A stretch of DNA of 64,000 bases, taken from assembly GCF_000091045.1 (NCBI RefSeq), contig NC_006693.1:186001-250000 (forward strand). Reading direction: 5' to 3'. The position numbers and the translations under genes are program-made. This DNA comes from Cryptococcus deneoformans JEC21 (taxonomy: Eukaryota > Basidiomycota > Tremellomycetes > Tremellales > Cryptococcaceae). The notes beneath the pieces are model-generated. The model made no database searches. It was given only the letters and a program-made list of their open reading frames with translations, and was not told the origin of the DNA. Below, in pieces: positions 30,711-62,869 of this stretch (position 1 is the stretch's first letter; each line of letters begins with the position of its first letter).

Positions 30711-31872
30711 ATGCCCGTTGCTGTTCAGGAATTCGTTCGCTCCGACGGTTAGTGCTGCCACGGCTACTTGGAAAGCATGGCTGACTCCATCCATAGACCC
30801 CGCCGGCACCAAGTTCGACACCATTTCTGACGCCGTTGATGATATCAACGTCGCCAAGCTCAAGGCTCAACACAAAGACAATGCATACGAGGAGTCCAAG
30901 TTCGACTCTGAAAAGGAAAAGGAGACCTTCCGCCAATTTGTTGACTCCAATGAGAGTTCCCGTAGGTTCTACATGTGAGTTGTGGAGCTTGGTTCGATTA
31001 TCTCTCGGCGGCCTACTAACATGCCGCGTAGCGAGCAACACACCAAGCAAACCGTTGAGTTCAACATCGAGGCCCGTCGCAAGGCTTTCGAAAAGCCCCG
31101 CGCTACAATGGGCGTTTGGGAAGCAATGGAGCTCTTAAACACCCTTGTCGACGCAAGTGACCCCGACACTAGCGCCACCCAAATTCAGCACCTTTTACAA
31201 ACCGCTGAGGCCATGAGGAAGGACGGCAAGCCGGAATGGATGCAGGTTACCGGTTTGGTCCACGACCTCGGCAAGCTACTCTACTTTTTCGGAAGTGACG
31301 GCCAATGGGTATGTGTGATTTCTCCAACCGCGGCAGCAATGCATCGCAATGCTTCGACGCTTACTTTATTGCAGGATGTCGTTGGAGACACCTTCGTTGT
31401 GGGCTGCGAAATTCCGACCGAGAAGATCGTCTATTCGGACACTTTTGGCGCCAACCCTGATGTCAACCACCCGGTCTACTCGACCAAGTACGGTATGTAC
31501 AAGCCCAACTGCGGTCTTGACAACGTCATGATCAGCTGGGGTCACGACGAGTATCTTGTGAGTTTCTTGTCATTCGTGAATCCATCCGCTATATGTTGAC
31601 GCCTTTCACAGTACATGGTTTGCAAGGAGCAGTCATCCCTCCCTAAGGCTGCGCTCCACATGATCCGATACCACTCTTTCTACCCCTGGCACCGCGAGCG
31701 TGCCTACACTTACCTTGAAAACGAGGCCGATAAGGAGGCATTGAAGGATGTTCTCGCTTTCAACCCCTACGACTTGTACTCCAAGTCCGACTCTCTGCCA
31801 GACCCTGTCGCACTTCGTCCCTACTACGAGGGTCTTATCGCCAAGTTCTTCCCGGAGAAAATCAATTGGTAA
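30711..31872 (+). CDS. MIOX: myo-Inositol oxygenase
   Basis: Five exons: 30711-30747, 30797-30974, 31032-31308, 31375-31557 and 31612-31872; 311 residues, the usual family length. The enzyme is a cytosolic di-iron oxygenase that cleaves myo-inositol with O2 to D-glucuronate. Diagnostic segments are visible: RRFYIEQHTKQTVEFN at the start of the domain, TGLVHDLGKLLYFFGSDGQW (HD metal ligands), ISWGHDEYLYMVCKE (second His-Asp), and MIRYHSFYPWHRERAYTYLE (His ligand), ending in FNPYDLYSKSD and the terminal W. All metal ligands expected from the family are present, so it should be active. It opens the catabolic cluster that runs to the right. Confidence 0.97.
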
Positions 31873-32998
31873 ACGATAATTGTAACATGTAGGCGTGATT
31901 GTAACAGTGAGATGCAAGCTTGTGACCATTGGCCATATGTGTGCTACAGTTCCATAAAATACGCTCTGCCAGACCGTCATGGGATTGAGAACAGTCTTGT
32001 CAAGTCAACTTGTCTTAATACAATTGAGTTATCTCTTTGCACGATGCAGGCATCCTCTTAGCCGTATGGGCATGGAGCTGAGAGCTGTGTCCTTCACTAA
32101 CGAAATTTAACCTGGCAGATCACTTTGACATCTGTTTAGCATGGCAAACTGATCGGAACATCAATCCCGCATTTCCCCCTTCCTGCACTTGTTTTTCTCT
32201 TTTTCTCGATCAATTTTTGTAATAACCAACTTTCGGAAAGGTCTGACAGGACCTACAATGGCGCAAGTTTTGTGCCCATTCTTATCTGAGTAATGGGCCG
32301 AACAAGGCTTTCTGGACCCTGAAATCCCTATTATCCATCTTCGGTGCCTACATTTCTGCTTCACCCTCAGATCACCGCTACCTTTGAACTGTTCGTTCGT
32401 CAATGGAATAAGACTCATTTTGTCGGGGAATAGAAGACATCAAGGTCTCATGATTGGATTATATATGAATGGATAGTATGAAGACCGATATTACCTTGGA
32501 CGTCCTACACAGTAACATCCTCTTTGCTGGATCGAGCGCAGAGCTGGACGGTCTGATAACGTTCGTCGACCGATGGCGATCAATGTTTTGGCCTTCTGGG
32601 GATGTAACTTTGACCAATGCACCCGGGTGCATAGGAATGCTTTAGTGTAACTTGCATTAAATAGTCCACGTACCAGGAAAATGTCAGATACATCTACTTT
32701 GGGTTACATTTTACATGCAACAAATAATAATAGCGTCAGATCAAGCGTTGAAAACAGCCTTGATTGAAAAGAGGCTTGCGTTAAAAAAATGCGAAAACCG
32801 ATGCGAAAACCATGAGATATTATTTTTCCGACCGGTTTCGCCATAGTATTGGGGTCGTTTCATACGACTCATGACAATCTTTAGTGATATGGGTAACATC
32901 GACCATCTCTTCAGTAGTCATTGGGCGTTGCATGCTATGAGCTCTCACACTTATACAGTGATACATAATTACAATCGACCGTACCCCAAGTTCACACC
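31873..32998. other. Convergent 3' spacer between MIOX and the PhyH-like gene
   Basis: 1.1 kb between the two stop codons. No domain-bearing frame or repeat seen. Confidence 0.45.
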
Positions 32999-60642: not shown

Positions 60643-61438
60643 GCCGCAGCTTGAGGACGTCCAGTGTGACAAGTGAACGTGGGGTCTTGATATGTGCTAG
60701 TGTTTTGGCTCTCAAAATGTTCCTAACTGAAGTTCTTGTATTTACATATATATGATCTGTATGCGTGTGATAGATATATATTGAATCTTCTTCTATGATA
60801 TGCATCAGCAGTTTACGTACGAGCAAGTGTGGGGCTTGGATAAAGTGGTCCTATTGCGTATGTTTGAGACAATAATCATGCTTGGGCATCGGTACCATTC
60901 GATAGCTATGCAACGTAGGAGTGTGTACATACCAACGTATGGAGTAACATGAGATGTACGTAGACGTTTCCCGTATATGGAGCGGAAGGAACAAAGTGTT
61001 GGAAGTGGAGGGTATCCGCCCTACGCACCCCTAAATTCGGCGATAGCCCGGCGTGCCTGTCTTTCTCTTTTGTTCTTCGTACCTTTCTATTCTCTTGTTC
61101 TTCGGCATTATTGCCCATATTCCTTATTGTTCTTCGGCACGATGTACGCTCAGAGCTCTTGTACTGCCTAATATATATATCAAGATCCCTACATCATACA
61201 TCATGCATCATTACTTCTTTTCTTGATCATACGATCGGATTCGCTCTCATTTACAAAGATGGAGACACTGATAACGATGATATGTTACGTAAGGTTTTAT
61301 AAGAAGGAGCCCTCGGCTGGAGCCGAAAGTCACCGAGGCCAGGAGATGGATATCTTCCCATCAAATTATTTATCATACCACTTCCCGTTGAGAATCTTAC
61401 TTTCATACGCCCATCTTATTTACACACAGACACGTACA
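60643..61438. promoter_or_regulatory. Spacer upstream of the dehydrogenase pseudogene
   Basis: 0.8 kb with AT-rich runs; no gene recognised. Confidence 0.4.
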
Positions 61439-62869
61439 ATGGCACCATTCACTCTCAACTTAGGTATCATCTCTACTGGTGGCATCTCCACTACCTTCGC
61501 CCACGACCTTGTCGTCGACCCGGCCTGCCATAACATTAAGAATGTCAACCACCCAAGATCGCCGCTGTCGGCTCCTGCTCCGTCTATTCCGCTCAATCGC
61601 TCCTTGACAAGCTCAATGAAAGCTGCGAGGGGAAATCATGGGCTTGGGGAGTGAGGAATGGTGTTCCCGGTAGTGCCAAACCGAGGGGCACTTACGAGGA
61701 AATATACAACGATCCTGTACGCAATCTGGGATCATCTTAAATGCTATGATAAGGCGTATTGACGTACTGCTCTCACAAGTAGGATGCTACAGCCGTCTAC
61801 GTAGGCACCCCACATGTCCTCCACCACCGTAACGCAAAAGGCGTTCTGTTGGCTGGTACACACGTCCTCGAGAAGCCTGCTTATTTCGAAGTCGAAGCGT
61901 TGGACGAGTTGATCAAGATTGCTAAGGAAAACAAAATCTTTATGGAGTGAGTCATTTGTTTGTCTCCTTCTCCTTTTACTCTCTTCCATCTTTTCCTTTG
62001 TAAGCATGTATGCTGATGAGCAACTTCGCAGAACTGTGTGGACTCGATTCCAACCCACCGCCTACGCCGTTGAAGAAGTCATCAAGTCCGGTATTCTCGG
62101 TAAACCCAAGCGTTTTTTTGCCGATTTCTCCATGGGCTGGGACATAGGCGGTACGCTTTCTTATCGCTGTCTAACAATCCATAATCATTACTAATTTGAT
62201 ACCATATCAGTTTCGGCCGACACCAGCCAAATGGTCAACCCAGCTCTCGGCGCTGGCTCGCTCCTTGATATGTCTGCCTACCCCTCTGTCTGGGCCATGC
62301 TCCTCCTCCACCGCCACCCTCTCAACCCCGATAAAGACCCCAAGGCGTTCGTCACCCATCAAACTGTTTACCCGCGCACTGGAGTGGACATCAACTGGAG
62401 GTGGTTGGTGGAATAGAAGGGGCTTATGCCAAGGAATGCCGATGACGGACTCGGATAATGGGGGACAGAAGGATTCGGCGGCGGCTTTGCAGTGTGAGGA
62501 AGGGGATTTGGTTATCACCTGTACGTCCCCTCATTCTCCCCCTTTTCCCTCGCGCTAACTTTTCTTTCCCTCGCCCCCTTTCTTCCTATGTAGACCCCCT
62601 TTACCAACCGGAGACATTCTACTCCACCCTCGTCCCTCCCGCTTCCCGGTACTATCACCTCTTCCACCACTCATCATCACCCTCTCCACGACGGGAACAA
62701 TGGGATGTCATACAAAGCAGATGAGGTTGCGAGGTGTATTAGGGATGGGAAGATTGAGAGTGAGAGGATGCCATGGGAGGAGAGCAGGGTGGGGCAGGGG
62801 TGGGTTGATAAGGTGAGGAAGGAAGGGCCGAGCGAGACTGCCAAGTTGGTGAGGACTGCTGGACAATAG
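61439..62869 (+). pseudogene. Frameshifted Gfo/Idh/MocA dehydrogenase (dimeric dihydrodiol dehydrogenase type)
   Basis: The start reads MAPFTLNLGIISTGGISTTF then AHDLVVDPACHNIKNVNH, a Rossmann start. The next segment (KIAAVGSCSVYSAQSLLDKL) is in a different frame, so a 1-base shift lies near 61553. Intact exons follow: DATAVYVGTPHVLHHRNAKG, AGTHVLEKPAYFEVEALDEL, then ETVWTRFQPTAYAVEEVIKS and GKPKRFFADFSMGWDIG, with the EKP catalytic Lys kept. After VYPRTGVD (near 62388) the frame is lost again; the continuation WWNRRGLCQGMPMTDSDN and KDSAAALQCEEGDLVIT is shifted. The end, GMSYKADEVARCIRDGKIES then ERMPWEESRVGQGWVDKVRK, is the conserved C-terminus, stop at 62869. At least two shifts therefore break the gene, unless they are assembly errors. 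The family oxidises sugars such as D-xylose or diols. Confidence 0.7.

What the first reader, a model, noticed from the sequence alone, without database searches (positions are those of the whole stretch)
30711..62869. A candidate myo-inositol/polyol catabolic gene cluster in a basidiomycete
Within 32 kb lie MIOX, an Itr-type inositol transporter, a second MFS sugar porter, two inositol-2-dehydrogenase-like Gfo/Idh proteins, a xylose-isomerase-like TIM-barrel protein of the inosose dehydratase superfamily, a PhyH dioxygenase, a cytochrome b2-type flavoprotein and a Zn(II)2Cys6 regulator, with two decayed members (isomerase, dehydrogenase) at the outer end. MIOX and Itr functions are established for their families. 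The combination suggests two routes for inositol, an oxygenase route (MIOX to glucuronate) and a dehydrogenase-isomerase route like bacterial IolG/IolE. That the genes act together is inference from proximity.
Basis: partly seen in the sequence, partly recalled or inferred. Interest (0 to 1): 0.85.

Follow-up and report, generated by a model that had tools for sequence, protein, structure and literature searches.

The report
Subtelomere-derived inositol gene cluster in Cryptococcus
A block of about eight neighbouring genes in the yeast Cryptococcus looks like a real inositol-utilisation cluster lying on or beside DNA that once sat near a chromosome end, but the second, bacterial-style breakdown route proposed for it is not borne out by the genome or by published mutants.

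Summary
The gene list is right. The window is chromosome 8 of C. neoformans var. neoformans (best fit JEC21); its MIOX is the published MIOX2/MIO3. Core, 30.7-51.8 kb: MIOX, PhyH, flavocytochrome-b2 type, PF01261 TIM barrel, two inositol-2-dehydrogenase-like Gfo/Idh genes, Zn2Cys6 regulator, sugar porter. From about 52.7 kb the DNA is shared with other chromosome ends (94% to the C10 end over 7 kb) and carries an ITR3-type transporter, one clearly and one probably broken gene. Beyond proximity: MIOX tail-to-tail with PhyH recurs on chromosome 7 beside a TIM barrel and an ITR2A-type transporter; PhyH was found only at these two places. H99 locus tags in papers suggest partly kept synteny. 'Two routes' is not supported: the mio1/2/3 triple mutant of H99 does not grow on inositol, the genome gave no IolE match and no IolD above cut-off, and the TIM barrel resembles 3-dehydroshikimate dehydratase, not IolE. 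I propose a funnel: dehydrogenases and TIM barrel convert other inositols or their ketones towards MIOX; the b2-type protein may act downstream on L-gulonate (inference). New member of a known kind, useful because Mio3's extra role is unexplained.

The parts
30711..31872 (+). MIOX, 311 aa, 5 exons; = MIOX2 of Mackenzie and Klig 2008 (chr 8), MIO3 (CNAG_05316) by elimination in later naming
   Evidence: Pfam MIOX 393 bits; 14 of 14 residue positions checked agree with the paper's MIOX2, and exon bounds 37, 264, 322 agree exactly, the others within 1-2 bases of its EST blocks; 235.8 bits to PDB inositol oxygenase 2huo
32999..34437 (-). PhyH-family dioxygenase, tail-to-tail with MIOX (N-terminus of model uncertain)
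   Evidence: Pfam PhyH; two loci found in the genome, both beside MIOX
34902..37182 (+). Flavocytochrome-b2-type FMN 2-hydroxyacid dehydrogenase with presequence-like N-terminus, cytochrome b5 domain and FMN domain
   Evidence: Yeast Cyb2 chains 1sze/1fcb at E about 4e-109; positions Y143, Y254, D282, R289, K349, H373, R376 kept, position 230 is Asn as in 113 of the 120 listed homologues; last exons spliced by hand
38301..39677 (+). PF01261 xylose-isomerase-like TIM barrel, 378 aa; E186/D217/E261/E343 at the expected metal-ligand positions (roles recalled)
40957..42461 (+). Gfo/Idh A, inositol-2-dehydrogenase-like, 366 aa, 8 exons
   Evidence: TIGR04380 iolG 282.6 bits (cut-off 355); best PDB match 'Inositol dehydrogenase' 4mkx, 187 bits
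44189..45698 (+). Gfo/Idh B, 64% identical to A, 8 exons
   Evidence: TIGR04380 287.6 bits
46200..49082 (-). Zn(II)2Cys6 / Fungal_trans regulator; zinc cluster within 48851-49082 (model approximate, low end not fixed)
49656..51838 (+). MFS sugar porter, 579 aa, not of the ITR3 branch
   Evidence: TIGR00879 372.5 bits; nearest paralogues C5:726k, C8:1175k, C12:199k, C3:1135k
40124..48574 (.). Segment that recurs at the extreme right end of C12 (898619-906666 of 906719; telomere repeats from 906669), with both Gfo/Idh genes and part of the regulator; the match ends before the zinc cluster
52674..64000 (.). Chromosome-end type block: 56955-64000 is 94% to C10:1074334-1081390 (contig length 1085720), other pieces shared with ends of C6, C3, C10 and C8 and with C14, some also with internal sites
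   Evidence: (contig lengths)
56935..57485 (+). Decayed second TIM barrel (in-frame stops, frame changes, C-terminal half missing)
58414..60642 (+). ITR3-type inositol-transporter-family MFS gene (my model drops a short piece near 59.3 kb)
   Evidence: best exon: 97% to C10:1076k, 86% to C4:19k, 83% to C8:1059k; 49-50% to the C7 ITR2A-type gene
61439..62869 (+). Probably decayed Gfo/Idh-type gene of a family often found near contig ends

Best explanation
The core (30.7-51.8 kb) is a genuine primary-metabolism cluster for using inositols, lying on and beside DNA of chromosome-end type. MIOX (activity shown in print for the H99 Mio proteins as a group) is the committed step, myo-inositol to D-glucuronate. 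The two Gfo/Idh enzymes and the TIM barrel act as a funnel: they interconvert other inositol stereoisomers or their ketones and deliver myo-inositol to MIOX, rather than forming a second, MIOX-independent route (inferred). The flavocytochrome-b2-type protein is a candidate for oxidising a polar 2-hydroxy acid downstream, L-gulonate to 2-keto-L-gulonate, a step called an unknown activity in A. niger (inferred, weaker). The PhyH enzyme's substrate is unassigned. The regulator would control the set (inferred from position only). The block right of 52.7 kb, with the ITR3 gene and two decayed genes, is shared subtelomeric-type DNA and probably not a built part of the unit.
For: Gene identities. Recurrence: C7:821.6-835.8 kb holds an ITR2A-type transporter, a TIM barrel, an SDR, PhyH and MIOX, with the same tail-to-tail MIOX/PhyH pair; PhyH was found at 2 loci, both beside MIOX. 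TIM barrels lie about 1 kb from ITR2A/ITR3-type genes at C7, at C8:1058-1062k and in the block shared by C8:243k and C10:1074k; at random placement, 2 or more of 4 TIM loci within 5 kb of 5 such transporters has P about 7e-5, duplicates counted once. Gfo/Idh A and B score best to iolG. H99 tags in papers: CNAG_05314 GLO3, 05316 MIO3, 05318 CYB2, 05328 Zn2Cys6, 05329 IDH3. Triple mio mutant does not grow on inositol. Six inositol transporters, four inositol 2-dehydrogenase copies and one inositol oxygenase are reported under selection in C. neoformans lineages (PMC5495072, section 8; which copies was not shown). L-gulonate oxidation unknown in A. niger.
Against: No co-expression or substrate data seen for any gene of the set but MIOX. 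Liu 2013 Table 1 lists Mio1, Mio2 and Idh1 (another locus) as induced, not Mio3, and its listed transporters change less than 2-fold (its full list was not seen); Wang 2021 reports all three MIO genes. The intact window TIM barrel is not next to an ITR3 gene (about 19 kb away), nor is the one at C8:1041k (about 16 kb). The C7 locus has no Gfo/Idh or b2-type gene among the matches, and the MIO1 locus has none of these neighbours. Both iolG scores are below NCBI's cut-off. The TIM barrel's nearest named family is a 3-dehydroshikimate dehydratase, so action on inososes is a guess. Asn at position 230 of the b2-type protein is common to its subfamily (113 of 120), including a 61% C. neoformans paralogue, so it does not single out gulonate. 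H99 tags point to extra genes (CNAG_05324 transporter, 05325 GH88-like) and another inner order, and IDH3 is given as 389 residues against 366 here, so synteny is partial and rests on tags, not DNA.
Confidence: 0.42

Rival explanations
1. One reading: two independent routes for myo-inositol, MIOX plus a bacterial-type dehydrogenase/IolE-like route.
For: Two iolG-like dehydrogenases and a PF01261 protein in a row.
Against: H99 triple mio mutant fails to grow on inositol; no IolE candidate at E<=10; IolD only 85.8 of 715 bits, on C1, not in the cluster; the TIM barrel matches QuiC and not IolE. Limits: an exon-by-exon search can miss a split gene and makes whole-protein cut-offs hard to reach, and H99 is not this strain.
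Confidence: 0.07
2. Subtelomeric aggregation: transporters, regulators and oxidoreductases collect and recombine near chromosome ends, and the neighbours share no pathway.
For: Much of the right half is shared with several chromosome ends and contains decayed genes; the Gfo/Idh pair recurs at the C12 telomere.
Against: MIOX/PhyH with TIM barrel and ITR-type gene recurs at C7:822-836 kb of 1348 kb, far from the contig ends; MIOX, PhyH, b2-type and the intact TIM barrel lie outside both shared blocks.
Confidence: 0.28
3. The Gfo/Idh pair and TIM barrel use cyclohexane acids (quinate/shikimate type), with the MIOX gene a mere neighbour.
For: TIM barrel nearest to QuiC-like fusions and PDB 5hmq (that 5hmq is QuiC-related is recalled).
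Against: Weak match (53.8 of 1200 bits; about 22-30% identity); Gfo/Idh A is nearest to inositol dehydrogenases in the PDB and A and B both to iolG; paralogous TIM barrels adjoin inositol-type transporters.
Confidence: 0.15

Closest known systems
Cryptococcus MIO1-3 / MIOX1-3 inositol oxygenases (PMC2584100 parts 1-2 of 4, PMC3617100 section 13 and passages, PMC8561382 section 6 and passages)
   Same: The window's MIOX is one of the three
   Different: In the parts seen, the neighbouring genes are not described as a cluster ('cluster' occurs 0 times in the main text of PMC3617100 and PMC8561382)
Dynamic primary metabolic gene clusters and subtelomeres of Cryptococcus (PMC8022950; search listing and start of abstract only)
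   Same: By title and term counts, the same kind of thing: metabolic clusters, transporters, subtelomeric regions
   Different: Not read; whether this cluster is treated there is unknown ('inositol' occurs twice)
Bacterial iol operon (IolG, IolE, IolD; TIGR04380, TIGR04379, TIGR04377)
   Same: Two dehydrogenases related to IolG
   Different: Below IolG cut-off; no IolE match; no IolD above cut-off; MIOX and PhyH are not iol genes (recalled)
A. niger D-glucuronate cluster gluD-gluE (PMC5306355, passages)
   Same: Fungal clustering of glucuronate-related steps; leaves L-gulonate oxidation unassigned
   Different: No b2-type gene or MIOX named in the passages seen
QuiC / 3-dehydroshikimate dehydratase (NF042435; PDB 5hmq)
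   Same: Closest named family of the TIM barrel
   Different: Partial, weak match; no HPPD-like domain; Glu where the QuiC-like relatives have Gln at one predicted metal-ligand position

Membership tests
Myo-inositol oxygenase (PF05153) | Family score and conserved iron-ligand stretches | tested here: met
   393 bits, cut-off 25; alignment to 2huo over residues 51-311 with the HD, WGHDE, HSFYPWH and DLY stretches kept (ligand roles recalled)
IolG inositol 2-dehydrogenase (TIGR04380) | Score above 355 bits | tested here: not met
   282.6 and 287.6 bits; still the best family for both, next 121.5 and 137 bits
IolE inosose dehydratase (TIGR04379) | Family score | tested here: not met
   TIM barrel has no IolE match at E<=0.01; no candidate in the genome at E<=10
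Bacterial iol pathway | IolD (TIGR04377) present | tested here: not met
   Best 85.8 bits against 715, at C1:673k; in the control 14 of 14 genomes ring and 3 pass the cut-off, so a sub-cut-off hit is unspecific
QuiC 3-dehydroshikimate dehydratase (NF042435) | Score above 1200 bits | tested here: not met
   53.8 bits over residues 124-265
Flavocytochrome b2 (yeast Cyb2) | b5 and FMN domains, catalytic residues | tested here: met
   (which residues are catalytic is recalled); substrate not testable here
Subtelomeric primary metabolic gene cluster | On chromosome-end type DNA, with transporter, regulator and enzymes | tested here: inconclusive
   40124-48574 and 52674-64000 recur at chromosome ends, but the region is now internal (217-249 kb of 1194 kb) and 30.7-40.1 kb was compared as DNA only with held loci
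Metabolic gene cluster in the functional sense | Co-regulation by one substrate | not testable with these tools
   No expression data for the neighbours

The most novel reading that the evidence does not exclude
A eukaryotic inositol-isomer funnel: a TIM-barrel enzyme seen so far only in Tremellales, with predicted metal ligands unlike those recalled for IolE and IolI, works with two dehydrogenases to turn tree-derived inositols into myo-inositol for a dedicated MIOX, while the clustered flavocytochrome-b2-type protein supplies the missing L-gulonate 2-dehydrogenase of fungal glucuronate catabolism; this would explain why mio3 mutants have phenotypes without a glucuronate defect.
Probability: 0.12. 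Interest if true: 0.7.

Novelty: new member of a known kind. Interest (0 to 1): 0.42.

Why it matters
Inositol use is a known trait of Cryptococcus, and the papers seen treat MIO and ITR genes as families rather than by neighbourhood. The finding gives MIO3 a set of specific neighbours (PhyH, TIM barrel, dehydrogenases, b2-type flavoprotein), and so concrete candidates both for the unexplained extra function of Mio3 and for an unassigned step of fungal glucuronate breakdown. It also shows that much of the region is chromosome-end type DNA now lying inside a chromosome, which bears on how such traits are gained and lost.

Tried and rejected
Considered and rejected: a bacterial-type second route (mutants). 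Asn at b2 position 230 as a sign of gulonate: dropped after (of 120 listed homologues Asn 113, gap 3, Asp 2, His 2). 30.7-62.9 kb as one unit: dropped. A telomere-like repeat inside the window: none; two units lie 2.2 kb to the right at C8:252190 at the edge of a LINE-type element, so a former chromosome end is likely, not proven. Not possible: synteny with other species' DNA (the genome has no relatives here), reading PMC8022950 (paper cap), structure prediction and hence fold search.

Limits: gene models come from a small gene finder of my own trained on the window and may be wrong at ends and some introns; for C7 the TIM-barrel model was incomplete and its exons were read by frame. JEC21 as the strain rests on 14 contigs, contig sizes recalled, and the MIOX match. 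The homologue searches scored about 8000 candidates each, and one search listed 120 of 895. In them the TIM barrel appears in C. neoformans, Kwoniella, Saitozyma and unnamed fragments, then bacterial fusions; for the b2-type protein the best C. gattii-complex entry listed is 61% (P0050), the level of the paralogue. Entries are 90% clusters, so a close C. gattii orthologue could hide inside a C. neoformans cluster; absence there is not shown. The P ignores general crowding of such genes.
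Full report
Where it is. The window is C8:186001-250000 of a 14-contig, 19,051,922-base genome. MIOX was found on C6, C7 and C8 (8 exon matches at three loci), the same chromosomes as the three MIOX genes described for C. neoformans by Mackenzie and Klig 2008 (PMC2584100; parts 1 and 2 of 4 read). The window MIOX has their MIOX2 residue at 14 of 14 positions checked; exon bounds 37, 264 and 322 agree exactly with their EST blocks and the others within 1-2 bases. 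So the window gene is their chromosome 8 MIOX2, with EST support. In later naming (PMC3617100, section 13 read) MIO1 is CNF03950 and MIO2 is CNG03010, so the chromosome 8 gene is by elimination MIO3, CNAG_05316.

What is there. Gene models and Pfam confirm MIOX, PhyH, flavocytochrome-b2 type, PF01261 TIM barrel, two Gfo/Idh genes, a Fungal_trans regulator with a hand-spliced zinc-cluster exon (17.4 bits, under the cut-off of 21), and two sugar porters. The inositol-type porter is the outer one at 58.4 kb: its relatives include a gene at C4:18.5 kb and, more distantly, one at C7:822 kb, whose positions fit ITR3A (CND00070) and ITR2A (CNG02980) by gene number (the mapping is my inference). The porter at 49.7 kb belongs elsewhere in the family. 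Of the two outer members the TIM barrel is clearly broken and the dehydrogenase probably so.

Composite span. Window 40124-48574, with both dehydrogenases and most of the regulator, recurs at the end of C12 (main pieces about 88-94%; 42884-43360 absent there), and telomere repeats begin two bases after the match ends; the match stops before the zinc cluster. Of window 52674-64000, the part 56955-64000 is 94% to the C10 end, and further pieces are shared with C10 and with sites near the ends of C6, C3, C10 (left) and C8 and with C14:751-754 kb (length of C14 not seen); some pieces also match internal sites. Just right of the window two telomere-type units stand beside a LINE-type element at C8:252.2 kb. 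The region is now 217-249 kb from the contig start, so I read it as internalised chromosome-end DNA. The stretches 30.7-40.1 and 48.6-52.7 kb lie outside the shared blocks; the first was compared as DNA only with held loci, the second with the whole genome.

More than proximity. At C7:821.6-835.8 kb lie an ITR2A-type porter, a TIM barrel, an SDR, PhyH and MIOX. MIOX and PhyH stand tail to tail at both loci; the proteins are 89% and 70% identical between loci, and PhyH was found at no third place. The MIO1 locus on C6 is different: none of the TIM, PhyH, ITR3/ITR2A or Gfo/Idh matches falls in C6:1130-1170 kb (6200 of the 40000 bases fetched were withheld). TIM-barrel genes stand about 1 kb from ITR-type porters at C7, at C8:1058-1062 kb and in the block shared by C8:243k and C10:1074k; the intact window gene and the one at C8:1041k do not. 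With duplicates counted once, random placement gives about 7e-5, a rough figure.

Conservation. Papers using H99 tags give CNAG_05314 GLO3 on chromosome 4 (the ArfGAP gene at 23759-25774 fits), 05316 MIO3, 05318 CYB2 'l-mandelate dehydrogenase', 05324 a predicted xylose transporter, 05325 a GH88-like gene, 05328 Zn2Cys6 and 05329 IDH3, myo-inositol 2-dehydrogenase, 389 residues. Apart from section 13 of PMC3617100, only passages of these papers were seen. So the neighbourhood seems kept in H99 in the main, with additions and probably another inner order; tags were compared, not DNA. The TIM barrel has relatives of 96, 82 and 67% in C. neoformans, Kwoniella and Saitozyma and one of 41% in Saitozyma; the b2-type protein has 92% in C. 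neoformans and 70-77% in Kwoniella and one source whose name is cut off.

Which chemistry. Both Gfo/Idh proteins score best to IolG but below its cut-off; A aligns best to PDB inositol dehydrogenases with the EKP lysine and the D...HD stretch kept (catalytic roles recalled). The TIM barrel has Glu186, Asp217, Glu261 and Glu343 at the positions expected for metal ligands (roles recalled); the third is Gln in its bacterial QuiC-like relatives. It is not IolE by family score; its PDB match to IolI (1i60) is insignificant (E 0.6); the genome gave no IolE candidate and only a sub-cut-off IolD hit. Published mutants settle the main point for H99: without the three Mio proteins there is no glucuronate and no growth on inositol (PMC8561382, section 6 and passages). 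A dehydrogenase route able to support growth on myo-inositol is thus not operating there. The simplest reconciliation is that the dehydrogenases and TIM barrel feed MIOX from other isomers. The same paper reports that mio3 mutants are like wild type for glucuronate yet have other phenotypes, and says additional functions may exist; the neighbours are natural candidates.

The b2-type protein. The positions recalled as catalytic in yeast Cyb2 are kept (the yeast chain used, 1sze, carries a change at 230, recalled). In A. niger the conversion of L-gulonate to 2-keto-L-gulonate is called an unknown activity (PMC5306355, passages). A 2-hydroxyacid dehydrogenase near MIOX is a reasonable candidate, but the subfamily is broad, this genome has further relatives (C4:944k at 61-74% over its best exons, others lower), and a 61% C. 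neoformans paralogue has the same residues, so this remains a proposal.

Results against. Liu 2013 Table 1 lists Mio1, Mio2 and Idh1 at CNF04890 as induced and not Mio3 (its supplementary list was not seen), in tension with Wang 2021. The C7 locus has no Gfo/Idh gene or b2-type gene among the matches, so those parts of the cluster have no second instance beside a MIOX. No structure could be predicted. Subtelomeric crowding alone remains a serious rival.

Print status. Searches turned up no paper that, in what I saw, describes this set as an inositol cluster; PMC8022950, on primary metabolic clusters in Cryptococcus, was seen only as a listing and may cover it.

Noticed in passing
C8:252190 (2.2 kb right of the window, L011:2190): Two telomere-type units TTAGGGGG at the end of a LINE-type reverse-transcriptase element, 252 kb from the contig start, beside chromosome-end type DNA: probable former chromosome end.
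   Followed up: partly
C12:898619-906666: Copy of window 40124-48574 directly abutting the C12 telomere; the match stops before the regulator's zinc cluster, and the second dehydrogenase copy may be damaged in an early exon.
   Followed up: partly
window 61439-62869; also C6:1-2 kb, C3:5-6 kb, C10:6-7 kb, C14:752 kb, C6:1427 kb, C10:1079 kb: A Gfo/Idh-type gene family often found close to contig ends.
   Followed up: partly
C6:1425-1428 kb: An inositol-dehydrogenase-like gene (position fits CNF04890 Idh1, 5.45-fold up with inositol in PMC3617100; mapping inferred) beside a copy of the outer Gfo/Idh-type gene.
   Followed up: partly
window 26258-28113: TauD-family dioxygenase (107 bits) between the GLO3-like gene and MIOX; relation to the cluster unknown.
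   Followed up: no
window 53579-55096: Long open frame (505 codons); the 359-residue model has no Pfam match; inside the chromosome-end type block.
   Followed up: no
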